From Devosia sp. (GTDB lineage Bacteria; Pseudomonadota; Alphaproteobacteria; Rhizobiales; Devosiaceae), in contig JACDQI010000193.1 in the NCBI GenBank assembly GCA_015657675.1, positions 1-35,386 on the forward strand: a stretch of DNA of 35,386 nucleotides, read 5' to 3'. Of the stretch, positions 521 to 32,644 are shown piece after piece (the stretch's first letter is position 1; each line of letters starts with the position of its first letter). The notes under the pieces are model-generated. The model had not been told where the DNA came from and did not search any database. It worked only from the letters and a program-made list of their open reading frames with translations. The position numbers and the translations under genes were made by a program.

Positions 521-523
521 GGC

Positions 524-2283: not shown

Positions 2284-2350
2284 CGCTGCTGAAAGTCCTG
2301 CGTGTCTGTCGAATGAAATGTCAGCTCGCCCACAAGGAGCGGACGGATGG

Positions 2351-2372: not shown

Positions 2373-2380
2373 TCAGAGGC

Positions 2381-3712: not shown

Positions 3713-3731
3713 GATGTCTCCTCCAAGAGAG

Positions 3732-3780
3732 CTTTTCACGCGATAAGCCGTAAGGCCCTTGATCATCCATATGTGAAAAG
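3732..3780. promoter_or_regulatory. Divergent promoter region with split inverted repeat (candidate IclR operator)
   Basis: The 140-nt gap between the importer and IclR starts holds CTTTTCAC at 3732-3739 and its exact complement GTGAAAAG at 3773-3780. The centres are 41 bp apart, close to four helical turns, which would suit a multimeric regulator such as the IclR protein encoded next door. The left copy lies just upstream of the importer ribosome-binding site. The repeat is seen; its function is inferred. Confidence 0.35.
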
Positions 3781-3852: not shown

Positions 3853-4626
3853 GTGACCAGCGTCGACGATCTCGACAAGTACCGTGCCCCTGCGCTCGAC
3901 AAAGGACTGGATATCCTCGAGCTTTTGGCGGCCACAGCGGAGGGGTTGAGCCAGGCCGAAATCGCCAAGTCGCTCGATCGCACGCCCAACGAAATCTACC
4001 GCATGCTCGACCGGCTGGTCCGCCGCGACTACGTCCGCCGCACCGCCGGCGACCGCTACGAGCTGACGCTGAAACTTTTCGAGCTGGCGCATATGGCGCC
4101 CCCGGTCGCCCGTCTTGTCGGCCAGGCGACACCCCTCCTCCGCACCTTTGCCCGCGACGCGCAGCAGGCGGTGCATCTCGTCATTTACGATCGCAACGTG
4201 CTGGTCGTCGTCGCCCAGGTGGATAGCCCCGGCTACTGGAACGTCTCGATCCGCGTTGGCTCGCGCATCGGCATGGTCAACACCGGTTCGGGCCACGTCT
4301 TCCTCGCCTTCGCTTCGGACGCCGAGCGTCAGTTGATGCTGGAGGACCCAGTGACGCGCCAACGCGAACTGCTCCCTGACGATCTCCAGGATCGGCTGAA
4401 GCTGGTTCGCGAGCGCGGCTACGAGAGCATGGCGAGCTTGCAGGTGGCCGGCGTGACCAACCTCTCGGTGCCGATATACGGCCCCAACGGCATGGTCATC
4501 GCGGCGCTGACCTGCCCCTATACGCAACGCCTCGATTCGCGCGACGCGCCCGACCGCGACCGCGTGCTCGACATGCTGCGAGCCACCGGCCGGCAAGTCT
4601 CCGACCAGCACCGCGTCGCCTCGTGA
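3853..4626 (+). CDS. IclR family transcriptional regulator
   Basis: Cytoplasmic DNA-binding regulator of 257 residues, normal IclR length. A GTG start at 3853 follows the strong site GGGAGGAGG. The N-terminal winged helix-turn-helix covers about residues 15-75 (LDKGLDILELLAA, LSQAEIAKSLDRTPNEIYRMLDRL, YVRRTAGDRYELT). The C-terminal IclR effector domain follows (VHLVIYDRNVLVVVAQV, VGSRIGMVNTGSGHVFLAF, VTNLSVPIYGPNGMVIAAL). Its stop overlaps a GTG of the next ORF, so it heads the catabolic operon and probably autoregulates. It is divergent from an ABC importer and likely controls both directions, with a pathway intermediate as effector (inference). Confidence 0.95.
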   Translation: MTSVDDLDKYRAPALDKGLDILELLAATAEGLSQAEIAKSLDRTPNEIYRMLDRLVRRDYVRRTAGDRYELTLKLFELAHMAPPVARLVGQATPLLRTFARDAQQAVHLVIYDRNVLVVVAQVDSPGYWNVSIRVGSRIGMVNTGSGHVFLAFASDAERQLMLEDPVTRQRELLPDDLQDRLKLVRERGYESMASLQVAGVTNLSVPIYGPNGMVIAALTCPYTQRLDSRDAPDRDRVLDMLRATGRQVSDQHRVAS

Positions 4627-4643
4627 CGGACCAGGAGCCCAAG

Positions 4644-5467
4644 ATGCGCATCGTCGATACCCACCTGCACCTGGTCTACAAGGACCGCTTCGCCTATCCC
4701 TGGCTCAGCGCCGCCCCGCCCCTCGACCAGCAATGGACCGCCGAGGATTACTTCGCGCAGGCTCGTGACCTCGGCATCGAGGCGGCTCTCCACATGGAAG
4801 TCGACGTCGCCGACGCCGATATGGAAGCCGAGACCCGCTTCATGTTGACCGTCCATCCCCGCGTCGTCGGTTCGATCGCACCCGGTCGCCCCGAGTCGGC
4901 GGACTTCCCCGCCTACCTCAAGCGCGTCGCCGCCATCCCCGGCGTGAAAGGCATCCGCCGCATCCTCCACACTTCGCCAGACGAACTGAGCGGCGCGCCG
5001 ACCTTCGTCGACAACATCAAGCGTATCGGCACCGCCGGTCTGCCCTTCGACCTCTGCGTCCTCGCCCGGCAACTGCCGGCCGGCACGCTGCTGGTCTCCC
5101 GCTGTCCCGATACGCAGTTCGTGCTCGACCATTGCGGCGTCCCCGATGTCGCCGGCAAAGGCCTCGATCCGTGGCGCGCGACATCGCCGCACTCGCGGCC
5201 AGACCCAATGTCGCCGCCAAGATCTCCGGCATTGTGGCCTACGCCAAGCCGGACTGGACGCTGGACGACCTGCGTCCCTTCGTCGAACACATCATCGCCT
5301 GCTTCGGCTGGGACCGCGTCGTCTGGGGTTCGGACCATCCGGTCTGCACGCTCACCGCCAATCTCGAACGCTGGGTCGCGGCGACCCGCGAGCTCGTTGC
5401 CGGTGCAAGCCAGGACGAGCAGTCAAAGCTCTTTCATCGCAACGCCGAACGCATCTACCAGCTCTAG
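4644..5467 (+). pseudogene. Amidohydrolase 2 family lactonase-like protein, frameshifted
   Basis: TIM-barrel amidohydrolase of the COG3618 type, which includes L-fucono- and L-rhamnono-lactone hydrolases. The metal motif DTHLHL is near the N-terminus, LDHCGVPD lies mid-protein, and SDHPVCTL near the C-terminus supplies the conserved Asp. ATG 4644 has AGGAG six bases upstream; a GTG at 4623 overlapping the IclR stop is an alternative. The reading frame breaks in a GCGCGC tract at about 5175-5180. The first half ends GKGLDPWR and the rest (RDIAALAARPNVAAK to NAERIYQL) continues in the -1 frame, so one base seems missing. Without a correction, the 5' frame runs on past the natural stop and becomes fused in frame with the mutarotase. 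Likely job: opening a sugar lactone made by the neighbouring dehydrogenases. An assembly error is the most likely cause of the break. Confidence 0.8.
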
Positions 5468-5477
5468 GGAGGAACCT

Positions 5478-5807
5478 ATGCAACGCTATGGATCGGTGAT
5501 CGGCCTCAGCGAAGAGGCAAAGACCGAGTACAAGCGCATTCACGCCGCCGTCTGGCCCGACGTGCTGGCCCAGATCGCTCGCTCGAACATCCGCAACTAC
5601 TCGATCTTTTTGAAAGAGCCGGAGAACCTGCTCTTCGCCTATTTCGAGTACCACGGCACCGACTACGCTGCCGACATGGCGGCCATGGCTGCAGACAAGC
5701 GCACCCAGGACTGGTGGGCCGTCTGCATGCCGATGCAGCGACCGCTCGAGACGCGCAAGGACGGCGAGTGGTGGGCGGACATGCCCGAAGTCTTCCATGT
5801 CGACTGA
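5478..5807 (+). CDS. L-rhamnose/L-fucose-type mutarotase
   Basis: Small cytoplasmic protein of 109 residues, the usual length for the RhaM/FucU-like DUF718 (PF05336) mutarotases that interconvert alpha and beta anomers of 6-deoxy sugars. ATG 5478 follows GGGAGGAA. Family landmarks are the YKRIHAAVWP segment (conserved Tyr and His), IRNYSIFLKEPENLLFAYFEY and [14 protein letters not shown]. It lies 10 nt after the amidohydrolase stop and overlaps the next gene by 11 nt, so it is in the operon. A paralogue with the same core motifs lies at 14184-14519. Exact sugar not determinable here. Confidence 0.92.
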   Translation: MQRYGSVIGLSEEAKTEYKRIHAAVWPDVLAQIARSNIRNYSIFLKEPENLLFAYFEYHGTDYAADMAAMAADKRTQDWWAVCMPMQRPLETRKDGEWWADMPEVFHVD

Positions 5808-6872
5808 GCCCCTGCCCCTCGACGTCGGCGGCCTGCGCCAGGCCTGGCCGCGCCCGTCGCGACCAAAACCCATCGTCGTCATCGGCAGCGGCGGCATCGT
5901 CAACGACGCGCACCTGCCGGCCTATCGGCTGGCCAACCTGCCGGTGGCTGGTGTCTACGATCTCGACCACGACAAGGCCCGTGCAGTGGCCGCAAAATGG
6001 GACACCCGCGCCTTCGAGACGCTGGAAGAAGCCATCGCCACGCCGGGCGCCGTCTACGACCTGGCTCTGCCTCCGGCCGCCCATCTCGACGTGTTGCCGA
6101 AGCTCCCCGACGACGCCGCTGTGCTCCTGCAAAAGCCCATGGGCCGCGACCTCGATGAAGCCAGCGCGATCCTGAATCTTTGCCGCGCCAAGCACCTTAC
6201 CGCCGCGGTCAACTTCCAGCTCCGCTTCTCGCCCATGCTGCTGGCCGTGGCCGATGCGCTGGAGCGCGGTTGGTTGGGTCGCTTGATCGACGTCGAGGTC
6301 CATCTCAACCTCGTCACGCCGTGGCACCTCTTCCCCTTCCTCAAGGGCATGCCGCGCGTCGAAATCGCCGTGCACTCGATCCACTATCTCGACACGCTGC
6401 GCGCCCTGCTCGGCAATCCGGTCGGCGTGCATGCGCGCACCATGGGCCACCCCTCGACGGATCTCGCACAGACCCGCACCTCGGCCATTTTCGATTTCGA
6501 GCCGGGCCAGCGGATCACGCTCTCGATCAACCACAACCACGATTTCGGCCGCCGCTTCCAGGACGCCAGCTTCCGCATCGAAGGCACCAAGGGCGCCGCC
6601 ATGCTCAAGCTTGGCCTCTTGCTCAATTACCCCGAAGGCGAGCCCGACGAACTCTGGATCACCAGCGGCGGCAGCGGCTGGACCCAGGTGCCTTTGTCGG
6701 GTCGCTGGTTCCCACATGCCTTCATCGGCACCATGAGCAATCTGCAGCGCTTTTCAGCCGGCGAGGACGCCCGACTCATGACCAGCGTCGAAGACGCCTG
6801 GCACACCATGGCCATGGCCGAAGCCGCCTTTGCCTCGGCGGCCCAGCCCGCCACTCCCGTGAGGACCACGCC

Positions 6873-6876
<4 letters not shown>
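5797..6876 (+). CDS. Gfo/Idh/MocA family oxidoreductase
   Basis: NAD(P)-dependent sugar or sugar-derivative dehydrogenase of 359 residues. The Rossmann dinucleotide loop GSGGIV is at about residues 30-35, after an N-terminal extension of about 20 residues. The usual EKP motif appears as QKPMG at about 112-116. The helix carrying the catalytic His reads [14 protein letters not shown] at about 193-206. The C-terminal half is the alpha/beta substrate domain typical of the family. It overlaps both neighbours (11 nt upstream, 4 nt downstream). Given the upstream lactonase and mutarotase it may oxidise the sugar C1 to a lactone (inference). The Glu-to-Gln change in EKP is a deviation to note; the Lys is kept. 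Confidence 0.93.
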
Positions 6877-7432
<556 letters not shown>

Positions 7433-7433
<1 letters not shown>

Positions 7434-8593
7434 TGCCCACGGACTCCGAGCTGCCGCTGACCGGCCTGGTCGTCGTCGACCTCTGCCAGTTCCTCTCTGG
7501 CCCCTATGCCACGCTGCGCCTGCAGGACCTTGGCGCGCGCGTCATCAAGATCGAGCGGCCCGATGGCGGCGATCTGAGCCGCCGGCTCTATCTCAGCGAC
7601 ACCGAGATCGGCGGCGACTCGACGCTCTTTCACGCCATCAACCGCTCCAAGGAAAGCCTGGCGCTCGATCTCAAGAACCCGGCCGACATTGCCGCTCTGA
7701 AGAGACTCCTCGGCCAGGCCGACGTCATGCTGCAGAACTTTCGTCCCGGCGTCATCGAGCGGCTTGGTCTCGACTATGAGGCAGTCAAAGCCATCAACCC
7801 GCGCCTCGTCTATGGCTCGATCACTGGCTATGGCAGCGAGGGCCCCTGGGTGCAGCGCCCCGGCCAGGATCTGCTGGCTCAAGCCCGCTCGGGCGTCATG
7901 TGGCTCAACGGCGATGACGACCAGGGGCCGGTACCGTTCGGTCTCGCCGTCGCAGACATGCTGGCCGGCGCTGCCATCGCCCAGGGCGTCCTCGCTTCGC
8001 TTGTCCGCCGCGGCGTCACCGGCAAAGGCGCGCATGTCGAGACCAGTCTGCTCGAAGTGCTCGTCGACTTCCAGTTCGAGGTGCTGACCACCCACCTCAA
8101 CGACGGCCGCCGCCCACCCAAGCGCGCCAACTTCCGCTCTGCCCACGCCTACCTCTCGGCCCCCTACGGCGTCTATCCGACAGCCGACGGCTACCTCGCC
8201 GTCGCCATGACCCCGCTCGGTGGACTTGCCGATCTACTCGGTCTCCCGGCGCTCGACACCTGGCGCAATGATCCGCGCAGCTGGTTCACCCATCGCGACG
8301 CCATCAAGCAGGTGATCGCCGCCCGCCTCGCCACCCAGCCGACCGCCCATTGGCTCGCCATCCTCGAGCCCGCCGACATCTGGTGCGCCAAGGTGCTAAC
8401 CTGGCCCGAGCTGCTGGAGAGCGAAGGTTTCAAGGCTCTCGACATGCTTCAGACCGTCACCCGCGAGGACGACGTTTCCATTACCACCACCCGCTCGCCC
8501 ATCCGCATCAACGGCCAACGCGCCCGCACGTCCCGGGCTGCACCACTGATCGGCGAGCAGAGCGCCCGCATCCGCGCGGAGTTCAACCTGTGA
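7433..8593 (+). CDS. CaiB/BaiF family CoA-transferase, first copy
   Basis: Class III CoA-transferase of 386 residues that moves CoA between carboxylic acids through an aspartyl-CoA thioester. Its start (TGATG junction) overlaps the upstream stop. Family blocks: VVDLCQFLSGPYATLRLQDLGA, VIKIERPDGGDLSR, NRSKESLALDLKNP, LQNFRPGVIERLGLDY, VYGSITGYGSEGPW and RPGQDLLAQARSG. Asp165 in LAVADMLAGA matches the catalytic Asp. The C-terminal region has the usual IRINGQRARTSRAAPLIGEQS ending. It is sandwiched between two MaoC hydratases, so an organic acid from the pathway is probably activated here and then hydrated. Substrates are not deducible. Confidence 0.94.
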
Positions 8594-9717
8594 CCACTCT
8601 CAAGGGCATGACCTGGAGCCATCCGCGCGGCTACGACCCGATGGTGGCGACCGCCAAAGCCTTCAAGCAAAAAACCGGCGTCGAAATCCTCTGGGACAAG
8701 CGCAGCCTGCAGGATTTTGAGACCTTCCCGGTCGAGGAACTGGCGCGCGCCTACGACCTCATCGTCATCGATCATCCCCATGTCGGCCAGATCACCGATG
8801 AAGGCTGCCTCACCCCGCTCGATGTGCCCGGCCGCGAGGTTGAGCGCGACGCGATGGCGCGCCACAGCGTCGGCCAGTCCTATCCCAGCTACAACTGGGC
8901 CGGCCGCCAATGGGCCTTCCCCATCGACGCTGCCACTCAAGTGATGGCCTATCGGCCCGACCTGCTGCCCACCCCACCACGCAGCTGGGACGAGGTCATC
9001 ACCCTCGCCCGCGCCGGCAAGGTGACGCTGCCGATGCGCCCGCCGCACGCCATGATGAGTTTTTTCACCCTGGCGGCCAATCTGGGCACGCCCTGCGCCA
9101 CTACTGGCCCCGGCGACCTGATCGCCCCCACTGATGGAGCCCGTGTCGTCGAACTGCTCCGCGCCGTCACTGACCAAATCGCGCCGGGCGACTTTGACAT
9201 CGACCCCATCGTTGCCTCCGAAACCCTCGCCGGCGACAACAGTCCCGTCTCGGTCATGCCGCTCGGCTACGGCTACCTAAGCTACGCGCTCGAGAACTTC
9301 CGGCCGCATCGCCTGAAGTTCACCAACATCCCGGTCGCCGGCACGCTCGGCCCGGTCGGCTCGGCTCTGGGCGGCACCGGTATCGCCGTCTCCGCCTTCT
9401 CAAAGCACCGCGACGCTGCCATCGACTACGCCTACTGGGTGGCGGGCGAAGAGATCCAGAAGACCCTCTACGCTGCCTCCGGAGGTCAGCCCGGCCATGG
9501 CCGCGCCTGGGAGGACGACGCCGTCAATGCGCCGGTCGCCAACTTCTACCGCGACACCCGCGCCACTCTCGAAGGCGCCTTCGTCCGGCCCCGCCACAAC
9601 GGCTACATGGCCTTCCAGGACGCCGCCTCGCAGCGCCTCAACGCCGGCCTCAAATCCGGCGAAGCGGCAACGAGCATCGTCGCCGCGCTCAACACCCTTT
9701 TCCGCGAGAGTTTCTGA
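8590..9717 (+). CDS. Solute-binding-protein-like protein without signal peptide
   Basis: Protein of 375 residues resembling family-1 ABC solute-binding proteins: an early [25 protein letters not shown] strand-helix unit, [18 protein letters not shown], the hinge area [30 protein letters not shown], and late [24 protein letters not shown]. The GTG start at 8590 overlaps the CaiB stop (GTGA). The mature-like fold begins within five residues, and no hydrophobic leader, lipobox or Tat motif is present. No ATG or GTG upstream adds one, because that sequence is coding for CaiB. As read it stays in the cytoplasm, lying between CoA-transferase and hydratase genes with no permease in the operon. It could be a ligand sensor, a carrier or a repurposed enzyme; the function is unknown. 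Confidence 0.85.
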
Positions 9718-10169
9718 TGGAACGCCCCCGTCACTTCGAGGACTACGTCGTTGGCGAGCTCCGCAAGACCTCGGGCCGCACCATCACCGAGACCGACTTC
9801 GTCGTGCATGCGGGCCACACCGGCGACTTCTTCCCGCACCACATGGATGCGGAGTTCATGAAGTCCTCAGAGTTCGGCCAGCGCATCGCCCACGGCACCA
9901 TGACCTTTGCCATCGGCATCGGTCTGACGGCCAGCGAGATCAACCCGCTCGCCTTCACCTATGGCTTCGAACGGCTGCGCTTCCCCAAGCCGGTGTTCAT
10001 TGGCGACACCATCCACACCGAGCTCACCATTTCGGCGCTCGAACCCGACCCCAAGCGCCCCGCCTATGGCCGCATCGTCGAGCAGGTGCGGGTGATCAAC
10101 CAGCGCGGCGAAACCGTTCTCGCCTGCGACCACGTCTATCTGGCGCAGCGCCGGGTCAGCGGCGCCTGA
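9717..10169 (+). CDS. MaoC-like hydratase, second copy
   Basis: Single hot-dog protein of 150 residues. ATG 9717 overlaps the upstream stop (TGATG). The hydratase-2 motif is GDFFPHHMD, with Asp37 and His42 in the canonical D-x-x-P-x-H spacing, unlike the first copy. [36 protein letters not shown] and the closing [12 protein letters not shown] are family landmarks. It shares the F-[IK]-P-x-F-I-G-D-T-I block with the first copy but lacks its N-terminal tail. This is the last gene of the plus operon, and its stop lies 14 nt inside the convergent enoyl-CoA hydratase gene. It probably hydrates or dehydrates an R-hydroxyacyl-CoA intermediate. Confidence 0.92.
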
Positions 10170-10926
10170 ACACCGGCACCCGTTTTTCCTTGAAGGCTGC
10201 GCGTCCCTCGCGCGCATCCTCGGTGGCAAAGCAAATCGTCTGCAGGTCGCGCTCATAGGCGATCGCATCGGCGATCGACATCTCCCAGGCCGCGCGCAGA
10301 TTGAGCTTGGCCGTCTCGGCCGCAATCGGCGCCCGCGCTGCGATGGCAGATGCAATCTTCAAGGCCTCGGCCCGCAGCGCAGTCTGTGGCACCACGCGGC
10401 TCACCAGCCCCCAGCGTTCTGCCGTCGCCGCATCGATCGGATCGCCGGTAATGATCATCAGTGCAGCATTGGATGGCCCCACGGCATGCGCCAGGTTCAC
10501 CGCCATGCCGCCGCCACCGATCCAGCCGAGCTTGACCTCCGGCGCCGCAAAGCTGGCCGTCTCCGCCGCGATGCGGATATCGCAGGCCATCGCCGTTTCC
10601 AGCCCACCGCCGAACGCATAGCCGTTGACCGCCGCAATCGATGGCTTCAGCAGCGCCCGGATCGCGTCGCAATAGTCCGGCCGGTTACGGAACGCCCACG
10701 GCGTCTCGTAGTCGTCCAGCGTCCGGATATCCGACCCTGCCGAGAACGCCTTCTCCCCCGCCCCGGTGAGAACGACGCAACGGATGCCGTCGTCACTGTT
10801 GAACCCCTCCACCGCCGCCACCAGCGCCGTCGCCATCTCCGGCGTCATCGCGTTCAGCTTCTCCGGCCGGTTGATGGTGATGACCCCGACCAACCCCTCG
10901 CGCTCGACGATGATGTTCTCGCTCAT
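10156..10926 (-). CDS. Enoyl-CoA hydratase/isomerase family protein
   Basis: Crotonase-fold enzyme of 256 residues, starting [11 protein letters not shown] at 10926. The oxyanion-hole segments are AFSAGSDI and [16 protein letters not shown], with the Glu after GGGL matching one crotonase catalytic acid. [15 protein letters not shown] supplies the second Glu region, though the usual Pro before the glycine run is Ile. It is the last gene of the large minus operon, 1 nt after the CaiB stop. Its 3' end overlaps the opposing MaoC gene by 14 bp. In crotonases this set of residues fits hydration, dehydration or isomerisation of an S-type or 2-enoyl-CoA, so it complements the R-type MaoC enzymes. Exact reaction unknown. 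Confidence 0.93.
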
Positions 10927-10927
10927 C

Positions 10928-12115
10928 TCACCCCTCCACCACCGCGCCGGCCGCCAGCAGCTGCGCGATGGTCGCCTCGTCATACCCAGCCTCGGCCAGC
11001 ACCTCACGCGAATGCTGCCCGGTGAGCGGCGCGCCGCGCTCGACCACCGATGGCGTCTTGGAGAACCGGATCGGAAAGCCCGGCGTCTTCACATGACCCT
11101 CGGTCGGGTGATCATATTCGACGAACGTGCCATTGTGTTTGATCTGCTCGTCCGCAACGAGATCGGCATAGCCATATACCGGCCCGCACCAGATGTCGGC
11201 AGCACGCAACAGCTCGAGCCATTCCGCGGTGGTCTTGGTCTTCAGTCGCTCCCGCGTCTTGGCAAAGATCTCGTCCCGCTTGGTCCAGGTATCGACCTCG
11301 TCGTCCATGGTCAGAAAACTCGGCTCGCCGATCACCTGCCCCAGATTGGCCAGTTTCGGGAACGCCACGATGATGAAACTGTCACTCGTCGCGAACGCCC
11401 CGTAGGGCGCGCGGATATAGACATGTGCGTGCGGCTCGGCCGAGCGCGCCTGCGGCTTGCCCGCCACCGTGAACACCGAAAGTTCCTGCATCTGGATGGT
11501 GGTGATGGCGTCGAGCATGTTGACCTGCACCAGCTGGCCTTCGCCGGTTCGCTCGCGATGCAGCAGCGCCGCCAGCGCGCCCTCGAATGCCGTGTAGGCC
11601 GTGATGCCGTCGACCAGATACTGCCCCGCTGCATTGGGCGGCTCGCCCGCCCGCCCGGCCGAGAGCATGGCGCCCGACATACCCTGCAAAACCAGATCCT
11701 GCCCCGGCCGATCCCGATACGGCCCGTCCTCGCCATAGCCCGAGATCGACACATAGACGAGCCGCGGATTGATCGCGCTCAGCGTCTCGTAGTCCACCCC
11801 CAGCCGCTTGGCGACACCGGGCCGGTAGTTCTGCAGGAACACATCCGCGGTCTTGACCAGTTCGAGCAGCACCGCCTTGCCGTCCGGCGACTTGAGGTCG
11901 ATGGCCAGCGAGCGCTTGTTGCGGTTGAGCGAGAGGAACGAGACATTGACCTTGTTCCCCCGGGCGCCGCCCGCCGCTGTATGCCGCTGCCATTCGCCGG
12001 TGATCGGCTCGACCTTGACCACATCGGCCCCCAGGTCACCCAACCGCTGCGCTGCAAACGGCCCCGCCATCGCGATGGAACAATCGAGAACGCGATAGCC
12101 CGAAAGGATACCCAA
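10928..12115 (-). CDS. CaiB/BaiF family CoA-transferase, second copy
   Basis: Class III CoA-transferase of 395 residues. The start is a TTG at 12115 with CGGAG eight bases upstream; the conserved RVLDCSIAMAGPFAAQRLGDLGA block leaves no room for the next ATG. Other family blocks: VVKVEPITGEWQR, LSLNRNKRSLAIDLKSP, LQNYRPGVAKRLGVDY, VSISGYGEDGPY and RPGQDLVLQGMSG. Asp169 in GQYLVDGITAY is the predicted catalytic residue. The ending GAPLTGQHSREVLAEAGYDEATIAQLLAAG is the common C-terminus. It lies between an SDR dehydrogenase and an enoyl-CoA hydratase. It is clearly a different subgroup from the first CaiB copy, so the two probably use different acids. Confidence 0.94.
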   Translation of the reverse strand: MGILSGYRVLDCSIAMAGPFAAQRLGDLGADVVKVEPITGEWQRHTAAGGARGNKVNVSFLSLNRNKRSLAIDLKSPDGKAVLLELVKTADVFLQNYRPGVAKRLGVDYETLSAINPRLVYVSISGYGEDGPYRDRPGQDLVLQGMSGAMLSAGRAGEPPNAAGQYLVDGITAYTAFEGALAALLHRERTGEGQLVQVNMLDAITTIQMQELSVFTVAGKPQARSAEPHAHVYIRAPYGAFATSDSFIIVAFPKLANLGQVIGEPSFLTMDDEVDTWTKRDEIFAKTRERLKTKTTAEWLELLRAADIWCGPVYGYADLVADEQIKHNGTFVEYDHPTEGHVKTPGFPIRFSKTPSVVERGAPLTGQHSREVLAEAGYDEATIAQLLAAGAVVEG

Positions 12116-12176
12116 GGTCAGAACTCCGGAGCAGTTATGGAAAGGTCATAGGGGTCAAGCCGCAGAGCTCGCGCCA

Positions 12177-12941
12177 TCAATTCATCCACCAGCCGCCATC
12201 GATATTGATCGCCTGCCCGGTGATGAACGACGCCGCGTCGGAAGCTAGGAACATCACCAGGTTGGCAATGTCCTCGGGCGCGCCGCGCCGCTGGATCGCT
12301 TGGTGGTCGTAGATGCGCTTTTCGTAGGCCGCGAAATCGGCATGGATTTTTTCCGCATCGGTTGGAAAGGCGCCCGGCGAAATGGCGTTGACGGTAATAC
12401 CGTGTTTGCCGAACTCCCGCGCCCAGGCCCGCGTCAGCCCGAGCAGCGCCCCCTTGGACTGCACATAGGGCGCCAGTTCGGCCCAGCCGCCCGAAAGCGT
12501 CACCGAGGTCACGTTGATGATCCGCCCGCGTCCCACCGCCTGCATATGCGGCAGCGCCACCTGCACGCAGACAATGCCCGCATCGACATTGATCCGCTGC
12601 ACCCGCTGCATCTCTTCGATCGAATAGTCGACGAACGGCTTGCTCGGGTAGATCGCCGCATTGTTGATCACCACGTCGAACCCACCGACCTCCGCCGACA
12701 AGGCATCGAGGCCAGAGCGCAACGCCGCCAAGTCACCGAGATCCAGCGTCCCGACCGTCAGTCCTTCGAGACCCGCCGCAGCCTCACGCAGCGCCGCAAC
12801 CTTGGCCGCATCATTGTCGATCGCCACCACGCGCGCGCCGGTGCGCAGGAGGCTCAGCGTCGTCTGCAGCCCGAGCCCACCGGCAGCTCCGGTATAGAGC
12901 ACCGTCCTGCCCGCCAGCGATCCGAAGCTGTCCTGGCTCAC
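12177..12941 (-). CDS. SDR family dehydrogenase (sugar or sugar-acid type)
   Basis: Classical short-chain dehydrogenase of 254 residues. A GTG start at 12941 overlaps the upstream DUF4432 stop (GTGA). The cofactor loop TGAAGGLG is at 17-24, Asp42 at the end of strand 2 favours NAD over NADP, NNAA is at 93-96, and the catalytic set is Ser146, Tyr159 and Lys163 (YVQSK). The end GQAINIDGGWWMN matches sugar dehydrogenases of the family. In the known oxidative L-fucose pathway SDRs act as fucose dehydrogenase or as the dehydrogenase for 2-keto-3-deoxyfuconate. Either fits here next to a mutarotase and a dehydratase, but the sequence alone does not decide. Confidence 0.94.
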   Translation of the reverse strand: MSQDSFGSLAGRTVLYTGAAGGLGLQTTLSLLRTGARVVAIDNDAAKVAALREAAAGLEGLTVGTLDLGDLAALRSGLDALSAEVGGFDVVINNAAIYPSKPFVDYSIEEMQRVQRINVDAGIVCVQVALPHMQAVGRGRIINVTSVTLSGGWAELAPYVQSKGALLGLTRAWAREFGKHGITVNAISPGAFPTDAEKIHADFAAYEKRIYDHQAIQRRGAPEDIANLVMFLASDAASFITGQAINIDGGWWMN

Positions 12942-14161
12942 GACCGCCCCTCGATCCGCGCATGCCGGTTCGAGGGTACCGGATAGTCCTCATCCGGCTG
13001 CTGGGCGATAGCGCGGATACGTGCCTCCGACTGCGCAATGGCATCTGCGCCATCCAGCACCCGAAACGTCGTGTCGTAGCGCCGCTCGTCACCATGCTGG
13101 AGCCAGATCATTTCGCCGCGATCGCGCGCCGCCTGATTGCCGAGCACGTGATGGGTCGAGGGTTCGATGCCCAGCGCATATTGCCCGGCCTGCAGATTCT
13201 GCCACTCGAACTGACAGGGGAACTGGCCCTTGCGTGTCGTCACTTCGAGGCCAAGTCCGACGCGGTCATTGACCAGCGCCACCGGCACCTCGCCGCCAAA
13301 GTCGGCACCCATCTCATGCTGCCAGACCTGCTCGTGGAAATCGAGCTGCGGCGCCGAAAGCCGGCGATAGCCGACGCCCTGCCGGCGATAGTTCGAGTGC
13401 ACGTCGTCAGCCCACACCACATCGGCGCGCGGCATGGGATCGGCATGCGCCGCCCACACCACATCCTTGATCGGCGCGATATAGCGCGCGCCCTCGTCGA
13501 GCACCGGATGGCCGACATTGATGTGGTAGCAGTACATATGCGGCGTCTTGTAAAAGCCGTGGTTGACCACCCGGTCCGTAAGCCGGATCTCGTTGCCGCC
13601 GACATCCGCCTCGATCCGGCGGATCAGATGCAGGTCCTCGCCGAACACAGCCGACTGCTGCACCACGCCTTCCGCCCACAGCGTGCAGCGATCGCCGTCC
13701 CAGCTTTCGCCATAGCCGGTGAGCCGTGCCGGAATGGTCCCCACGCGCCCATGCAACGAATGCTGCACCGTCGGCTTCGGACCATAGACATAGCTCTCGG
13801 CCGAAACCTCGTTCATGAAGAGAATATGGTCGAGCCCACAGGTAACCAGCAGCCCGGAGAACGAGCGCGCCCAGGCGAGCCCGCCCTCCCCTTCATATTC
13901 GTGCAACCCCGGATGCCGGAACCCGGCCGGCGAATGCCAGCCGATCGCCCGGCCATTGTGCTCGCACTCGGCAATATCCATCGCCCGGTCAACTAGAACC
14001 GTGAACCGCAATCCCGAGCCGGTACGGAATTCGAGCAGCCGGATGCCGCGCTCGACGCCGTCGCCCAGCGTCATCAGCCGCACGCCGGCAAACTGGCTCA
14101 GCATGCCCGAGCGCTCCGATACCTCGCGACGCGAGAGAGTCTGCCCGAAGAGTTCAACCAT
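12938..14161 (-). CDS. DUF4432 family protein (aldose 1-epimerase-like)
   Basis: Protein of 407 residues matching the DUF4432 group, a galactose-mutarotase-like beta-sandwich family often found in sugar catabolic operons. ATG 14161 starts MVELFGQTLSRREVSERSG. Landmarks are FTVLVDRAMDIAECEHNGRAIGW, the double-aromatic THMYCYHINVGHPVLDEG-like segment (PHMYCYHINVGHP), and the late ALGIEPSTHHVLGN. His and Glu residues in those blocks are where aldose epimerases hold their catalytic groups. No signal peptide is seen, so it should act in the cytoplasm. It lies between a mutarotase and an SDR. It may epimerise or protect the sugar substrate, but no reaction is established for close family members that I can name. 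Confidence 0.9.
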   Translation of the reverse strand: MVELFGQTLSRREVSERSGMLSQFAGVRLMTLGDGVERGIRLLEFRTGSGLRFTVLVDRAMDIAECEHNGRAIGWHSPAGFRHPGLHEYEGEGGLAWARSFSGLLVTCGLDHILFMNEVSAESYVYGPKPTVQHSLHGRVGTIPARLTGYGESWDGDRCTLWAEGVVQQSAVFGEDLHLIRRIEADVGGNEIRLTDRVVNHGFYKTPHMYCYHINVGHPVLDEGARYIAPIKDVVWAAHADPMPRADVVWADDVHSNYRRQGVGYRRLSAPQLDFHEQVWQHEMGADFGGEVPVALVNDRVGLGLEVTTRKGQFPCQFEWQNLQAGQYALGIEPSTHHVLGNQAARDRGEMIWLQHGDERRYDTTFRVLDGADAIAQSEARIRAIAQQPDEDYPVPSNRHARIEGRS

Positions 14162-14183
14162 CTTTCGTCATCCTCCGTCGTGT

Positions 14184-14519: not shown

Positions 14520-15427
14520 TCCTTGGTGCCTCCGGCCGTCATCCCGGTCACCAGGAACCGCTGCGAAAAGAGAAACACGATCAGCACCGGCGAGATCGCG
14601 AGCAGCGTCGCGAGCGCCAGCGCCGAAAGCGAGATCGTGGTCGAGGCCGCATTGGTCGGGTTGAACGCCGGTACATTCGAGAGCAGCTCGGCCAACCCGA
14701 CCTGGATCGGCGCCTTGCGCCCCGGCAGCGTCACATAGGGCAGGAAATAGTTGTTCCAGTTGCCGGTGAAGTTGAAGAACCCCACCAGCGCAATCACCGG
14801 CGTCGCCAGCGGCATGGCGATCTTGGCAAACACCTGGAACTCGTTGGCGCCATCGATCCGCGCTGCGTCCAGCAGGTCGCGCGAGATGGCGGTCGAGAAA
14901 TAGATGTAGGTCAGATAGACGCCAAACGGGAAAAACGAGAACGGCAGGATGACCGCCAGCGGATTGCCGATCAGCTTGACCGCGCTGAGTTCGAGAAAGA
15001 TCGGCAGCACCAGCGCCGTGCCCGGCACCAGCATCACCACCAGCGTCGTCGCCAGCAGTGCCTTGCGCCCCCGGAACTCGGTGAGCGCCAGCGCATAGCC
15101 GGCAGGGATCGAGATCACCAGCGTGATGATCAGCGCGGCGATGCAGTAGAAGGCCGAGTTGCCGATCCAGGTCCACAGCAGCCCGTTCTGGAAGGTGACG
15201 AGACTCATCCAGTTGTCGACCAGTGTCGGCCAGTCGCCGATGGCGAAGGGATGCTCGAGCAGCAGCTGCCGGTCGGTCTTGGTCGGTGCGATCAGCAGCC
15301 AGATCAGCGGCACCACGAAGAAGGCCGCAAAGGTCAGCAGCAGCAGGATAGCGAAAACGCGGCCCAGCCACGCCCCCGGCGACAGGGTCGGCTGGGGCCG
15401 GCCGGTGGAAAGATCAAGCGCGCTCAA
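14516..15427 (-). CDS. Sugar ABC transporter permease, MalG type (second importer)
   Basis: Inner-membrane permease of about 303 residues. No ATG is available near the N-terminus. TTG 15427 (LSALDLSTGRPQ) follows GGGGTGG and overlaps the upstream permease end by 14 nt; GTG 15436 is an alternative. The first membrane helix is FAILLLLTFAAFFVVPLIWLL, about residues 24-44, and the EAA-type loop reads LDAARIDGANEFQVFAKIAMP. The end FLVTGMTAGGTKE is typical for the family. It pairs with the MalF-type permease upstream. No ATPase gene follows in this operon, so it must borrow one, possibly that at the left edge of the window. Confidence 0.9.
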   Translation of the reverse strand: MSALDLSTGRPQPTLSPGAWLGRVFAILLLLTFAAFFVVPLIWLLIAPTKTDRQLLLEHPFAIGDWPTLVDNWMSLVTFQNGLLWTWIGNSAFYCIAALIITLVISIPAGYALALTEFRGRKALLATTLVVMLVPGTALVLPIFLELSAVKLIGNPLAVILPFSFFPFGVYLTYIYFSTAISRDLLDAARIDGANEFQVFAKIAMPLATPVIALVGFFNFTGNWNNYFLPYVTLPGRKAPIQVGLAELLSNVPAFNPTNAASTTISLSALALATLLAISPVLIVFLFSQRFLVTGMTAGGTKE

Positions 15428-16343
15428 ACAAGCCACCCCGGAACACGAACACCACACTGAGGACGACGGCGACGACCAGCAGCAGCAGCGAGATCGCCGC
15501 CGAACCGTTGAAGTCGCTCTGCTTGAAGGCATAGAGGAAGGCGAGCTGGTTGAGCGAATAGTCCTGGCTCACCACGCCGCGGCTGGCCTGCGACAGCACG
15601 CGCGGCTCGACAAAGAGCTGCGTCCCACCGGCAAACGACAGCACCACCATATAGGCGATCCACTTGCGCATCAGCGGGATCTGGATCGACCACGCAATGC
15701 GCACCGGCCCTGCCCCATCGACGCGCGCGGCCTCGATCACGTCCTTGGAAATGTTGTTGAGGGCGCCATACATCACCACGATCCAGCCGCCCGCACCGGT
15801 CCAGAAGGCGATCACCGCCAGCACCAGCGGCAACCGGTCGGCCTGCACCGCCGAGACCAGCGAGGTGATCCCGAAAGCCTGCAGGATGAAGCCTACCGGA
15901 CTGACGGTAGGATCGAGCACAAAGAGCCAGAGCATCACGCTCGATGCCCCCGCCAGCGCGCCGGGGATGTAGTAGAGGAACCGCATGCTCGAGGAGAGCC
16001 AGCGGATGCCGATCGAGTGCACCACCAGCGCCAGCAGGACCACGAAGAACACCAGCCCGACCAGCCAGACGATAAGGAAGACGCCCACATGCTCGACGGC
16101 GGGCAGGAAGCGGTAGTCCTTGAACACCTTGATGAAGTTGTCGATGCCGACAAAGGCACCCTTCTTGGTGAAGGCAAGGTAGACCGCATAGAGCGATGGC
16201 AGGATGCCGAAGACGACAAGAAACAGCGTATAGGCGCTGACAAATATCAGCCCCATGCGCCCCTGCGCCTTCTCGACGCTGCCGTTGCGGGGCCGCAGCC
16301 CGCCCGTTAGCGGGCGGACTGCGTTTTGGTCGAGGCTGGTCAA
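15414..16343 (-). CDS. Sugar ABC transporter permease, MalF type (second importer)
   Basis: Inner-membrane permease of about 309 residues. I chose TTG 16343 (reading LTSLDQNAVRPLT) because CGGAG lies eight bases upstream and the following 30 codons have strongly GC-biased third positions like the rest of the gene. ATG 16256 (MGLIFVSAYTLFL) is the alternative and would leave the hairpin at 16294-16323 outside the gene. An ATG at 16433 overlaps the binding-protein gene and is unlikely. The EAA loop is IEAARVDGAGPVRIAWSIQIP. About six membrane helices are seen and the end is FRGGLFERA. It follows the binding-protein gene by 35 nt. Confidence 0.88.
   Translation of the reverse strand: MTSLDQNAVRPLTGGLRPRNGSVEKAQGRMGLIFVSAYTLFLVVFGILPSLYAVYLAFTKKGAFVGIDNFIKVFKDYRFLPAVEHVGVFLIVWLVGLVFFVVLLALVVHSIGIRWLSSSMRFLYYIPGALAGASSVMLWLFVLDPTVSPVGFILQAFGITSLVSAVQADRLPLVLAVIAFWTGAGGWIVVMYGALNNISKDVIEAARVDGAGPVRIAWSIQIPLMRKWIAYMVVLSFAGGTQLFVEPRVLSQASRGVVSQDYSLNQLAFLYAFKQSDFNGSAAISLLLLVVAVVLSVVFVFRGGLFERA
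16294..16323 (-). other. Strong hairpin near start of second MalF-type permease
   Basis: CGCAG-c-CCGCCCG and CGGGCGG-a-CTGCG pair across a TTAG loop: 7 bp, one mismatch, then 5 bp. It lies 56 nt beyond the binding-protein stop, comparable to the hairpin after the first binding-protein gene. It is either intercistronic, if the permease starts at 16256, or inside the first codons, if it starts at 16343. No T-run follows on the minus strand. Role as an mRNA-processing or stability stem is inferred. Confidence 0.4.
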
Positions 16344-16378
16344 ATCGTCGAACTCCGGACGCTGCTCAGTCGGAAGGC

Positions 16379-17650
16379 TCAGTCGACGGTGTAACCGACG
16401 ACCTGCGCCTCGTTCTTCATTTCCTGCTGCCACTCGGCCGAGAGGTCAGCCATGGTCTTGCCGGCAGCCAGACCCGGGGTGATCACCTTGGCCCAGGCGG
16501 TTTCAGGCGAGAAGTTCGGGTAGCCCCAGCCGTTCCACACCGAGGCGGCAGCTGTCGAGATCGCCGCCTTGAAGTCGCCGGCGTAGAAGCCACTCGAAGC
16601 CTGCGCTTCGAGCCAGGCGTCAGCAGCGGCCTTGTAGGCCGGCAGACCGCCGGTACCGGCCGTCTTCTCGTTCGAAACGATGTACTGCAGGAAGGTCTTC
16701 ACCGCTTCGGGGCTGGCCGTATGGCTCGAGGCATACCAGACACCGCCGCCGACATTGCCGGTGACCTTGTCCTTGCCTTCCCAATAGAGCGGCTCGGCAG
16801 CCACCCAGTCGCCGGCCTTGGCATTGACTCCACCGGGGTTCTGGAACAGCGCGCCCGCATACCAGGCAGCGCCCGGGATGGCGACGAGCTTGTCGGCCGA
16901 CGCCACGAACGACGCACCAAAGAGGCTATCGAGCGTCAGCGTCTTGTTGGCGACCATATGGTCGATCAGCGCCGAGACCTTCGCCGCATCGGGATGGCTG
17001 GTGTCGGACTTGAATTTTTCGCCCTCGACCTGGAAAATGGGCGCCTGGCCGCTCCAGTAGTAGACGTACGGGCCCTCAAAACTGTCGCCGATGGCGCCGA
17101 GGAAATAGCCCGGGTGCTCGGCAGCGAGCTTGTCGCCCAGCGCCTGATAGGCTTCCCAGGTCTTGGGCGCTTCGTAGCCGAACTGCTCGAGCAGCGTCTT
17201 GTTGTACCAGAAGAGCACCGGTGCCAGGTCATTGCGCAGGCCATAGACCTTGCCATCAATGGTCACCGGATCGAGTGCGCCCGGCGTGAAGCCATCGAGG
17301 AACGCCTGATCGAGGAAGCCTTCGTTCAGCACCTGCGCGAAGGGCTGCACACCATTGATCTCTTTCGAGGCCCAGGCGGCGTCGTTATTCTGCGTCGAGA
17401 ACACCACGTCCGGCCAGCCTTCGCCGGCCTGGTCGGCCAGACCGATCTTGGTCTGGAACGTGCCCGAGGCACCCGACGAGCCGTCGTCGACCACAAGGTT
17501 CACCTTGATTTCCGGATGGTCGGCCTGAAAGGCCTCCACCGCCGGCTGGCGCGTCGCGTCAGCCCAGATGGTGATTTCGCCTTCAGCGGCGAGGGCGGGA
17601 CTGGCGGCCATCAGGGCCGAAAGCGCGACCAGTGTGTGCTTCAATTTCAT
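16379..17650 (-). CDS. Sugar ABC transporter substrate-binding protein (second importer)
   Basis: Periplasmic family-1 binding protein of 423 residues. The start at 17650 (MKLKHTLVALSALMA) follows GGAGGAG; longer in-frame readings lack a site. The signal peptide ends about ASPALAA before EGEITIWADATRQPAVEAF. The fold landmarks LRNDLAPVLFWYNKTLLEQFGYEAPKTW-type segment, GAIGDSFEGPYVYYWSGQ and VAIPGAAWYAGALFQNPGG are typical for MalE/UgpB-like sugar binders. It is 55 nt downstream of the enolase-superfamily dehydratase, so uptake and catabolism are coded on one transcript. Substrate probably the same sugar class; not provable from sequence. Confidence 0.93.
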   Translation of the reverse strand: MKLKHTLVALSALMAASPALAAEGEITIWADATRQPAVEAFQADHPEIKVNLVVDDGSSGASGTFQTKIGLADQAGEGWPDVVFSTQNNDAAWASKEINGVQPFAQVLNEGFLDQAFLDGFTPGALDPVTIDGKVYGLRNDLAPVLFWYNKTLLEQFGYEAPKTWEAYQALGDKLAAEHPGYFLGAIGDSFEGPYVYYWSGQAPIFQVEGEKFKSDTSHPDAAKVSALIDHMVANKTLTLDSLFGASFVASADKLVAIPGAAWYAGALFQNPGGVNAKAGDWVAAEPLYWEGKDKVTGNVGGGVWYASSHTASPEAVKTFLQYIVSNEKTAGTGGLPAYKAAADAWLEAQASSGFYAGDFKAAISTAAASVWNGWGYPNFSPETAWAKVITPGLAAGKTMADLSAEWQQEMKNEAQVVGYTVD

Positions 17651-17705
17651 GAGTGTCTCCTCCAGACAGTATGCAGATGCCGTGCGGACGGAAGCCCGCC
17701 GTAGA

Positions 17706-18848
17706 TTATGACTTTGCCTTGACGCGCGGATTGAACGGCGCTGCGCCGAGCTCGCTGCGCGGCAGCAGCTTCGGCCGCGCCCATTCGCGCCGCGCTGTTT
17801 CGCTGAGCACCAGCCCATGGCCCGGGCGGTTCGGTGCGTGCGCAAAACCGTCGCGGATCAGCACCGGTTCGTCGACCAGGTGATCGAAATTCTGGAACGA
17901 GTATTCGAGCCACTGCACTTCGGGCAGCGCTGAGGCCATGTGGACGCCGACTTCGAGGAAGGTGTTGCCCAGCGACACGGGGATGCCCATGTCGGCGGCC
18001 AGCCAGCCGATCCGCATCACGTCCGACACCTGGCCGTGCACGTTGAGAATATCGGTGCCGCCGGCCTGCATCAGTTGCCGCTTGCCCGAGGCATCGAGAT
18101 ACTCGCCCGAGTTGATCAGCGTCCAGTTGCAGCTTTCGCGCAAGAGGCGCAGCCCTTCGTAGTCATTGCGCAGGATCGGGTCCTCGACCCAGAGCAGTTC
18201 GTAGCCGGCGCGGCGGATGGCGCTAAGCTTGGTCACCGCTTCCTTGGCGCCCCAGGCTTCGTTGGCGTCGATCATCAGCAGCGCGCCGGGACGCACCGCC
18301 TGTGCCACGAGTTTCAGCCGGTTGAGGTCCCAGTCGAAGTCGGGGTGGCCGACCTTGATCTTGAACGCCCGGTAGCCGATCGAGTCGGCATGGGCAAAAA
18401 ATTCGCTGAACTCGTGATCGGAGAGATGGAAGTCGAGCCCGCTCGCATAGGCCTCGACCTTGTCGCGCCGGCTCCCCAAGAGCTTGTGCAACGGCAGGTC
18501 GACTTGCTTGGCCGCAAGGTCCCACAGTGCCACCTGCAGCGCCTCATGGAACGGCACCGTATAGGCCCGCTGGTTGCCGCCGCGCGGCCGGCCGACGCGA
18601 TGCACCAGCCCGGCGGGCGGCTGTCCCTCGATATTGGCCCAGACTTCTGAGACGAACACCCGCTCAATCTCGGCCTGATCGGGCAGCGGATAAAACAAGG
18701 TCTGGATAAACCCCAACCCGACGGCGCCGGTGTCGGCAATCAGCTCGAGCGCGGCTATGTTCACATCGTCCGCACGCACCTGGCTGTCGCCAATGACACG
18801 ATCGCGGGCGAACTGGAAACGTGTGATGCGGAACTCGACAACGCGCAT
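17706..18848 (-). CDS. Enolase-superfamily sugar-acid dehydratase (mandelate racemase/muconate lactonizing type)
   Basis: Cytoplasmic Mg-dependent enzyme of 380 residues. Seen in order: the N-terminal capping domain, Lys163/Lys165 in FKIKVG, metal ligands Asp194 (DANEAW), Glu222 (VEDP) and Glu249 (SGEYLD), then Asp266 in GGTDILNVHG. In mandelate racemase the Asp pairs with a His in the seventh strand; here the matching segment reads VSLGNTF, with Asn295 where His is expected. His271 in NVHG might stand in. Acid-sugar dehydratases such as fuconate dehydratase are usually longer (about 430 residues). The role as dehydratase is supported by family and context, the substrate is not. It is the first gene of the operon and is divergent from a GntR regulator. 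Confidence 0.9.
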   Translation of the reverse strand: MRVVEFRITRFQFARDRVIGDSQVRADDVNIAALELIADTGAVGLGFIQTLFYPLPDQAEIERVFVSEVWANIEGQPPAGLVHRVGRPRGGNQRAYTVPFHEALQVALWDLAAKQVDLPLHKLLGSRRDKVEAYASGLDFHLSDHEFSEFFAHADSIGYRAFKIKVGHPDFDWDLNRLKLVAQAVRPGALLMIDANEAWGAKEAVTKLSAIRRAGYELLWVEDPILRNDYEGLRLLRESCNWTLINSGEYLDASGKRQLMQAGGTDILNVHGQVSDVMRIGWLAADMGIPVSLGNTFLEVGVHMASALPEVQWLEYSFQNFDHLVDEPVLIRDGFAHAPNRPGHGLVLSETARREWARPKLLPRSELGAAPFNPRVKAKS

Positions 18849-25367: not shown

Positions 25368-25369
25368 AG

Positions 25370-32643: not shown

Positions 32644-32644
32644 C

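What the first reader, a model, noticed from the sequence alone, without database searches (positions are those of the whole stretch)
3853..18848. Two convergent operons join 6-deoxy-sugar oxidation genes with CoA-transferase and hydratase genes
Seen: mutarotase, lactonase-type amidohydrolase, oxidoreductases and an enolase-type dehydratase share tight operons with two CaiB transferases, two MaoC hydratases and a crotonase. Known: L-fucose and L-rhamnose oxidation normally ends with a keto-deoxy acid cleaved by an aldolase or a diketo-acid hydrolase, with no CoA step. CoA-transferase plus MaoC pairs occur in itaconate and mesaconate routes, where a CitE-type lyase finishes; no such lyase, aldolase or FAH hydrolase is seen here. 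Inference: a sugar-acid pathway completed through CoA thioesters, possibly undescribed.
Basis: partly seen in the sequence, partly recalled or inferred. Interest (0 to 1): 0.75.

Follow-up and report, generated by a model that had tools for sequence, protein, structure and literature searches.

The report
CoA-transferase module in sugar-acid operons
Two neighbouring operons of a bacterium carry, among genes for breaking down a fucose-like sugar, a conserved set of CoA-using enzymes plus an unexported sugar-binding protein whose joint role I found described nowhere in the papers I could search, which makes it a good lead for a new step of sugar metabolism.

Summary
Window 3853-18848 has two convergent operons with the listed genes; corrections: the lactonase frame is broken near 5180, and 'no FAH' is true of the window only. 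The pathway inference is partly right. On other contigs the same genome carries relatives of L-fuconate dehydratase, of the keto-deoxy-fuconate SDR and of the FAH hydrolase, and two long orthologous clusters hold them beside the CoA genes; so the CoA genes do not replace the known L-fucose ending. They are not bystanders either. The signal-less binding protein (SBPc, 8590-9717) has a CoA-transferase on the same strand in 106 of 112 distinct copies (99 within 300 nt) from Pseudomonadota, Streptomyces and Bacteroidota; of the 6 others, 2 sit at contig ends and 4 are distant members. All three CaiB genes of this draft genome lie on its two SBPc contigs. No thiolase, hydroxyacyl-CoA dehydrogenase, AMP-ligase or CitE relative was found within 5 kb of SBPc in 115 loci. 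Ten of 14 CaiB2-type loci show no sugar-acid dehydratase; six of those carry a relative of 2-keto-3-deoxy-acid dehydratases. I propose CoA cycling as in carnitine dehydration: CaiB charges a sugar acid, MaoC or crotonase dehydrates it, CoA moves on. Mechanism and substrate are inferred.

The parts
3853..4626 (+). IclR-type regulator
   Evidence: Pfam IclR_C, HTH_IclR; IclR also in relatives' clusters
4623..5467 (+). L-fucono-lactonase-type amidohydrolase, reading frame broken near 5180
   Evidence: PF04909 on the first part; two homologous pieces in different frames; 'L-fucono-lactonase-type' from the neighbourhood and recall
5478..5807 (+). L-rhamnose mutarotase family protein (rhaM1)
   Evidence: PF05336
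5797..6876 (+). Gfo/Idh/MocA oxidoreductase
   Evidence: PF01408, PF02894
6873..7433 (+). MaoC1, hydratase fold with the His of the usual Asp/His pair replaced
   Evidence: PF01575; DxHPYV in 64 of 64 distinct homologues
7433..8593 (+). CaiB1, family III CoA-transferase
   Evidence: PF02515 4.5e-101; Asp column kept in 113 of 113 distinct CaiB
8590..9717 (+). SBPc, sugar-binding-protein fold without export signal
   Evidence: PF13416/PF01547; no strongly hydrophobic N-terminus; model pLDDT 92.6, Foldseek carbohydrate-binding SBPs first
9717..10169 (+). MaoC2, hydratase with Asp/His pair kept
   Evidence: PF01575; PDB 4ffu match 5e-66; motif in 51 of 52 distinct, the one miss being a partial match that starts after the motif
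10156..10923 (-). crotonase (enoyl-CoA hydratase) with both Glu kept
   Evidence: PF00378, alignment to solved hydratases, first Glu motif in 15 of 15 distinct, second in 16 of 16 aligned
10928..12115 (-). CaiB2, family III CoA-transferase
   Evidence: PF02515 1.1e-108
12177..12941 (-). SDR oxidoreductase
   Evidence: PF13561
12938..14161 (-). DUF4432 (aldose-1-epimerase-like) protein
   Evidence: PF14486
14184..14510 (-). second rhaM mutarotase family protein (53% identical to the first)
   Evidence: PF05336
14516..15532 (-). ABC permease
   Evidence: PF00528
15414..16433 (-). ABC permease (longest open frame; true start probably inside)
   Evidence: PF00528
16379..17650 (-). exported ABC binding protein
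   Evidence: PF01547 3.2e-16; hydrophobic N-terminus 1.87
17706..18848 (-). enolase-superfamily (dehydratase/racemase-type) protein, close to PDB 2oz8 Mll7089
   Evidence: PF13378, 1.4e-186 to 2oz8
1..3766 (-). ABC importer (binding protein, two permeases, UgpC-type ATPase cut by the window end) that flanks the IclR gene as in relatives
   Evidence: 51% and 75% identity to binding protein and ATPase of the Pararhizobium cluster

Best explanation
The CoA genes are a conserved module (CoA-transferase + signal-less sugar-binding protein + MaoC and/or crotonase) that works on a sugar acid made or imported by the operon. I think it uses CoA in a cycle, as the carnitine CaiB/CaiD system does: CaiB moves CoA from a product thioester to the incoming acid, the hydratase removes water at C2-C3, and CoA is handed on, so that an aldonate becomes a 2-keto-3-deoxy acid without an IlvD- or enolase-type dehydratase. 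An FAH-family enzyme then acts on the keto-deoxy acid. In this window one copy (MaoC1-CaiB1-SBPc-MaoC2) ends a 6-deoxy-sugar (L-fucose-type) oxidation operon and a second pair (CaiB2-crotonase) ends a DUF4432/SDR operon, probably for acids that the L-fuconate dehydratase does not accept. SBPc probably binds the acid or its precursor in the cytoplasm and may present it to CaiB. Shown: gene content, conservation, adjacency, missing signal, kept active-site-type residues, missing CoA-cleaving enzymes nearby, relatives of the classical ending elsewhere in the genome. Inferred: substrate, dehydration, CoA cycling, a CaiB-SBPc complex.
For: SBPc with a CoA-transferase on the same strand: 99 of 112 distinct copies within 300 nt, 4 more within 1 kb, 3 at 2.6-6.5 kb; 13 of 17 clusters at 58% identity. 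In a sample drawn evenly over the phylum (398 genomes: 23 places in 18 genomes; the query profile A3 was itself built from SBPc copies of CoA-linked loci) 22 of 23 have one in the stretch seen, 19 of them adjacent or with one gene between, 3 farther or of another family; the one left (G051:C17) was seen with 1.5-kb flanks only. All 3 PF02515 genes of the 85%-complete draft lie on the two contigs bearing SBPc; on the second a non-homologous family I CoA-transferase lies one gene after SBPc. No export-like N-terminus (109 of 109 places from the alignment start; 114 of 115 when extended to the farthest in-frame start). CaiB Asp 113 of 113, MaoC2 motif 51 of 52, crotonase Glu 15 of 15 distinct. 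0 of 115 loci have a thiolase, hydroxyacyl-CoA dehydrogenase, AMP-ligase or CitE hit within 5 kb of SBPc. Of 15 CaiB2-type loci (14 distinct; L055 = L153) 11 (10 distinct) had no hit to IlvD, Edd, enolase, UxaA or UxuA references and 7 (6 distinct, all among the former) had FAHb, a relative of 2-keto-3-deoxy-D-arabinonate dehydratase. L030: LacI, MaoC, TRAP importer, CaiB2, crotonase, SBPc by Pfam and alignment. The CaiB/CaiD CoA cycle: PMC2131755 (passages).
Against: CaiB1-type loci, like the left half of the window, also carry enolase-type dehydratases (42 of 93 hit by one reference in the stretch held), so a second dehydration is not obviously needed there. The window's CaiB2 operon also has an enolase-type gene. 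15 of 115 loci have no MaoC or crotonase in the stretch held (several are short). Four distant SBPc members have no CoA-transferase found near and sit by lactonase or enolase genes, so SBPc may serve something other than CoA transfer. CoA-enzyme hits exist farther off: AMP-ligase 5.6 kb and thiolase 7.2 kb in L113 (source of these two queries), dehydrogenase 6.9 kb in L044, and CitE, thiolase and ligase relatives 7.1-8.9 kb away in L055/L153; 23 of 115 places have less than 6 kb on one side. Each missing-enzyme test used one or two reference proteins, so distant relatives could be missed. MaoC1 lacks the usual His. One place (L146) reaches hydropathy 1.79 if a start 22 residues upstream is used.
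Confidence: 0.42

Rival explanations
1. One reading: the sugar acid is degraded through CoA thioesters to the end, with C-C cleavage of the CoA ester (for example by the crotonase acting as hydratase/lyase) to an aldehyde and a short acyl-CoA.
For: In L030 the operon from LacI to SBPc holds MaoC, a TRAP importer, CaiB2 and crotonase and no other enzyme; L075 looks the same by alignment and by eye. CoA thioesters in sugar-acid breakdown have a precedent in deoxyribonate catabolism (PMC6365646, passages). L055/L153 have CitE and thiolase relatives 7-8 kb away.
Against: No thiolase, hydroxyacyl-CoA dehydrogenase, ligase or CitE relative within 5 kb of SBPc in 115 loci; FAH-type enzymes accompany a number of copies.
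Confidence: 0.2
2. Stereo-inversion: CaiB plus two hydratases epimerise a hydroxyl of the acid by dehydration and rehydration as CoA ester (carnitine-racemase-like), feeding the enolase-type dehydratase and the normal ending.
For: Two MaoC genes, or MaoC plus crotonase, in one cluster; coexistence with enolase-type dehydratases in CaiB1 loci.
Against: MaoC1 lacks the usual His in 64 of 64 distinct sequences, so it may not be a second hydratase; some loci show one hydratase gene only.
Confidence: 0.18
3. SBPc is a cytoplasmic sensor or carrier of the sugar acid and has no part in CoA transfer; the CoA genes are a separate, loosely linked function.
For: Four distant SBPc members without CoA-transferase found near, beside lactonase and enolase genes; several copies lie next to IclR genes.
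Against: Adjacent to CaiB in most copies, in either order (of 95 places within 150 nt, CaiB upstream in 85 and downstream in 10), in three phyla; linked once to a family I CoA-transferase.
Confidence: 0.3
4. Ordinary L-fucose oxidation operon with hitch-hiking fatty-acid-type genes and no functional link.
For: Relatives of the classical L-fucose genes lie elsewhere in the genome.
Against: Gene order conserved among Hyphomicrobiales and the core pair in three phyla.
Confidence: 0.05

Closest known systems
Carnitine CaiB/CaiD system of enterobacteria (PMC2131755, passages seen)
   Same: Family III CoA-transferase paired with a crotonase hydratase, CoA cycling between product and substrate
   Different: Partner genes here are for sugars and sugar acids; an unexported SBP is coupled to the transferase; MaoC may replace the crotonase; no AMP-ligase (CaiC type) within 5 kb of SBPc; CaiA and CaiT equivalents were not searched for
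Non-phosphorylative L-fucose/L-rhamnose pathway, Route III (PMC6336799, passages seen)
   Same: Mutarotase, lactonase, enolase-type dehydratase, SDR and FAH in orthologous clusters; relatives elsewhere in the genome
   Different: No CoA step there (the search for 'CoA' in that paper's main text gave 0)
Oxidative deoxyribonate catabolism (PMC6365646, passages seen)
   Same: CoA thioesters of a sugar acid; one cluster has a CoA-transferase
   Different: Uses a beta-keto acid cleavage enzyme, or CoA-synthetase, dehydrogenase and thiolase; 'solute-binding' does not occur in the text searched
Itaconate/mesaconate CoA-transferase-hydratase-CitE routes (recalled; NCBIfam models only)
   Same: CaiB and MaoC family members
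   Different: Scores far under the curated cut-offs (e.g. 203 and 215 of 700 for succinyl-CoA:mesaconate transferase); no CitE within 5 kb of the module
ABC sugar-binding proteins such as SmoF/SQBP, LpqY, MalE
   Same: Fold of SBPc (Foldseek TM about 0.73-0.84)
   Different: No export signal seen; coupled to a CoA-transferase rather than to permeases

Membership tests
Family III CoA-transferases (CaiB/BaiF) | Full-length PF02515 domain | tested here: met
   CaiB1 4.5e-101, CaiB2 1.1e-108
Family III CoA-transferases (CaiB/BaiF) | Active-site Asp (position recalled from formyl-CoA transferase) | tested here: met
   Asp in 113 of 113 distinct sequences; aligned with Asp of the formyl-CoA transferase 10uh
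Family III CoA-transferases (CaiB/BaiF) | CoA-transfer activity | not testable with these tools
   needs enzyme assay
Carnitine CaiB/CaiD-type CoA cycling | CoA-transferase plus hydratase together, no CoA-ester-cleaving enzyme beside them | tested here: met
   window genes; 100 of 115 loci have MaoC or crotonase in the stretch held; no cleaving-enzyme hit within 5 kb
Carnitine CaiB/CaiD-type CoA cycling | Carnitine-specific CaiB family membership | tested here: not met
   L-carnitine CoA-transferase model 78.1 and 138.9 bits against cut-off 413
Non-phosphorylative L-fucose pathway (Route III) | L-fuconate dehydratase, KDF dehydrogenase and FAH hydrolase in the operon | tested here: not met
   absent from the window; relatives of all three on contigs C300, C150, C168 of the genome
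Non-phosphorylative L-fucose pathway (Route III) | Orthologous cluster contains these genes | tested here: met
   Pararhizobium and Nitratireductor plasmids
Itaconate/mesaconate CoA route | CitE-type lyase with the module | tested here: not met
   0 of 115 loci within 5 kb; nearest 7.1 kb in L055/L153; one PF03328 gene on contig C221 of this genome
Deoxyribonate CoA route (Klebsiella type) | CoA-synthetase, dehydrogenase and thiolase with the module | tested here: not met
ABC importer binding protein (for SBPc) | Export signal | tested here: not met
   hydropathy only, no signal-peptide predictor; 1 of 115 places (L146) borderline with an upstream start
MaoC R-hydratase | Asp/His pair (recalled motif) | tested here: inconclusive
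   kept in MaoC2 (51 of 52 distinct), His lost in MaoC1 (64 of 64)

The most novel reading that the evidence does not exclude
A two-part CoA-transferase in which a cytoplasmic sugar-binding protein delivers aldonic acids to CaiB, giving a CoA-cycling dehydration of sugar acids that needs no metal centre and replaces IlvD- and enolase-type dehydratases in at least three phyla.
Probability: 0.25. Interest if true: 0.85.

Novelty: new variant of a known kind. Interest (0 to 1): 0.6.

Why it matters
Sugar-acid catabolism is thought to rest on a few dehydratase families; a CoA-cycling dehydration would add a new chemistry and explain operons that now look incomplete. An ABC-type binding protein kept inside the cell and coupled to an enzyme would be an unusual reuse of that fold. 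CaiB1 and SBPc relatives occur in Sinorhizobium meliloti, a tractable model, so both points can be tested directly, and the result would correct annotations of 'CaiB' and 'extracellular solute-binding protein' genes.

Tried and rejected
Chance neighbourhood: rejected by conservation. Known CoA routes of itaconate or mesaconate: not supported, by model scores and missing CitE. Mutant data for the S. meliloti orthologues: two literature searches (on L-fucose and S. meliloti tags; on six locus tags that I recalled and did not confirm) and passages of PMC11378808, PMC12542648 and PMC9007349 gave nothing on these genes. Searches for the gene set, for a cytoplasmic SBP with CoA-transferase, or for CoA-dependent aldonate dehydration listed nothing relevant to the pair (listings only unless a paper is named as seen in passages). 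Natural CaiB-SBPc fusions: none among the open frames listed (longest 571 aa). A single SDR-CaiB reading frame of 697 aa on contig C159 could be a fusion or a frame error and was not pursued.
Full report
What is there. Searches give two convergent operons. The + operon is IclR (3853-4626), a lactonase-type amidohydrolase (from 4623, frame broken near 5180), mutarotase rhaM1 (5478-5807), Gfo/Idh oxidoreductase (5797-6876), MaoC1 (6873-7433), CaiB1 (7433-8593), a solute-binding protein without export signal, here SBPc (8590-9717), and MaoC2 (9717-10169). The - operon, read from the right, is an enolase-type protein (18848-17706), an exported ABC binding protein and two permeases, rhaM2 (14510-14184), DUF4432 (14161-12938), SDR (12941-12177), CaiB2 (12115-10928) and a crotonase (10923-10156). 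MaoC1, CaiB1, SBPc and MaoC2 overlap by one, four and one bases. The enolase-type protein is close to Mll7089 (2oz8, 1.4e-186); MaoC2 is close to 4ffu, named only 'oxidase'.

The missing ending is not missing. The window is contig 308 of a 3.94-Mb, 317-contig draft estimated 85% complete and 4.9% contaminated. On other contigs it has an L-fuconate dehydratase relative (C300, 80% over 179 aa), an unbroken lactonase with a divergent SDR (C150; the SDR 69% to that of the Pararhizobium cluster) and an FAH relative (C168, 68% over 252 aa, cut by the contig end). The FAH of the Pararhizobium cluster scores 425 bits against a cut-off of 500 for 2,4-didehydro-3-deoxy-L-rhamnonate hydrolase. On plasmids of Pararhizobium and Nitratireductor CaiB1, SBPc, lactonase, IclR, ABC importer, enolase-type protein, rhaM, Gfo/Idh, MaoC2, SDR, FAH and L-fuconate dehydratase are neighbours. 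So a classical L-fucose ending stands with the CoA genes rather than being replaced by them. Among the 80 loci kept with 10-kb flanks, 65 show at least two of nine fucose-cluster marker genes, 2 show one and 13 none; only 2 of 80 show an FAH or L-fuconate-dehydratase relative, the cluster being longer than the flank. FAH also lies in the CaiB1 clusters L112, L139 and L140.

The CoA genes are a module of their own. Of 115 places, 3 are repeats of the same record (L153, L162, L163). Of the 112 distinct SBPc sequences, 99 have a CoA-transferase on the same strand within 300 nt, 4 within 1 kb (L030, L055 and L075 with the crotonase between; L138 with a family I CoA-transferase), 3 at 2.6-6.5 kb; 6 have none, of which L021 and L039 are at contig ends and L158-L161 are distant members beside lactonase or enolase genes. 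At 58% identity there are 17 clusters, 13 with a CoA-transferase. SBPc was found in 18 of 398 genomes over the phylum, 6 of 385 over the class and 2 of 369 over another class (the samples share some genomes). Contexts outside the fucose cluster: Streptomyces (CaiB, SBPc, crotonase, FAHb, with DUF4432 and SDR divergent), Pseudosulfitobacter, Sinorhizobium plasmids, Bacteroidota Rufibacter and Persicobacter with two CaiB genes, and LacI-MaoC-TRAP-CaiB2-crotonase-SBPc in L030 (Pfam) and by eye in L075, with FAHb next in L055. In this genome PF02515 occurs three times: twice in the window and once on C159, the contig of the second SBPc, where SBPc is followed by IclR, a family I CoA-transferase and an RraA-like gene and, 11 kb on, by CaiB; PF01547 has 46 matches, 43 over the cut-off.

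SBPc itself. From the alignment start, none of 109 places has a strongly hydrophobic N-terminus (maximum of a 12-residue window in the first 45 residues 1.09; the window's two exported SBPs 2.03 and 1.87). Extended to the farthest in-frame start, 1 of 115 (L146) reaches 1.79 and the others stay under 1.6. This is hydropathy, not a signal-peptide predictor. The model (A4, window plus 36 loci sequences) has mean pLDDT 92.6 and pTM 0.91; Foldseek ranks sulfoquinovosyl-, trehalose- and oligosaccharide-binding proteins first. Residues such as W9, R13, D61, H62, Y101, D113, Y227, Y229, Q300, R333 and R335 are invariant in 13 sequences from three phyla.

Chemistry. The CaiB Asp column is Asp in 113 of 113 distinct sequences; MaoC2 keeps the Asp/His pattern in 51 of 52 (the miss, L007, is a partial match); MaoC1 reads DxHPYV in 64 of 64, without the usual His; the crotonase motif GGGxE is kept in 15 of 15, the second Glu in 16 of 16 aligned copies. 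That these positions are catalytic is recalled. With FadA, a second thiolase, an AMP-ligase, the FadB dehydrogenase part and this genome's CitE relative as queries, no hit lies within 5 kb of SBPc in 115 loci; the nearest are 5.6 kb (ligase) and 7.2 kb (thiolase) in L113, the source of those two queries, 6.9 kb (dehydrogenase) in L044, and 7.1-8.9 kb (CitE, thiolase, ligase) in L055/L153; 23 places have less than 6 kb on one side (one search was a first version measured start to start). Of 15 CaiB2-type loci (14 distinct), 11 (10) had no hit to IlvD, Edd, enolase-type, UxaA or UxuA references and 7 (6) had FAHb; the window and L111 have enolase-type genes, L147 and L149 UxuA relatives. FAHb matches 9kkt (FAH family) and 2-keto-3-deoxy-D-arabinonate dehydratase but no NCBIfam model; D-KDP dehydratases are annotated as FAH family (PMC7374468, passages). 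This genome has an FAHb (57%) next to an aldehyde dehydrogenase on C15. Together this suggests that CaiB and a hydratase do the work of the aldonate dehydratase, with CoA cycled as in carnitine dehydration (PMC2131755, passages). For the CaiB1 copy in the fucose-type operon, where enolase dehydratases are also present, the substrate is open.

Verdict. My searches of open-access text found no description of it; most subscription papers are not held there, and fitness databases were not searched.

Noticed in passing
window 4623-5467: Lactonase-type amidohydrolase is frameshifted near 5180; an unbroken relative (57% over the first part) lies on contig C150.
   Followed up: partly
window 19950-22172 and 23340-25369: GH95 glycosidase (fucosidase/galactosidase family, recalled) beside the - operon, a LacI-type regulator, and a second glycosidase-like gene (GHL6 and GH42M domains) split over two frames, then another ABC importer.
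   Followed up: no
window 28636-35280: ECF sigma factor, Metal_resist-domain protein, MerR regulator and two P-type ATPases: probably a heavy-metal homeostasis cluster next to the sugar genes.
   Followed up: no
window 6873-7433: MaoC1 keeps the fold but has Val where the usual hydratase His stands (DxHPYV in 64 of 64 distinct homologues); it may be a partner subunit of MaoC2.
   Followed up: partly
L169 2578-15663 (contig C159): Second SBPc locus: SBPc, IclR, family I CoA-transferase, RraA-like gene, enolase-type gene, Rbs-type importer, and an SDR and CaiB read as one 697-aa frame.
   Followed up: partly
L107 8992-13788; L108 9001-13677: Bacteroidota operons with two CaiB genes and two SBP genes in mirror order, suggesting a heteromeric transferase.
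   Followed up: no
L158, L159, L160, L161: Distant SBPc relatives beside lactonase or enolase-type genes with no CoA-transferase found near.
   Followed up: partly
window 12938-14161: A DUF4432 protein next to an SDR recurs with CaiB2 in L106 (divergent), L109, L111, L114, L150 and L015.
   Followed up: partly
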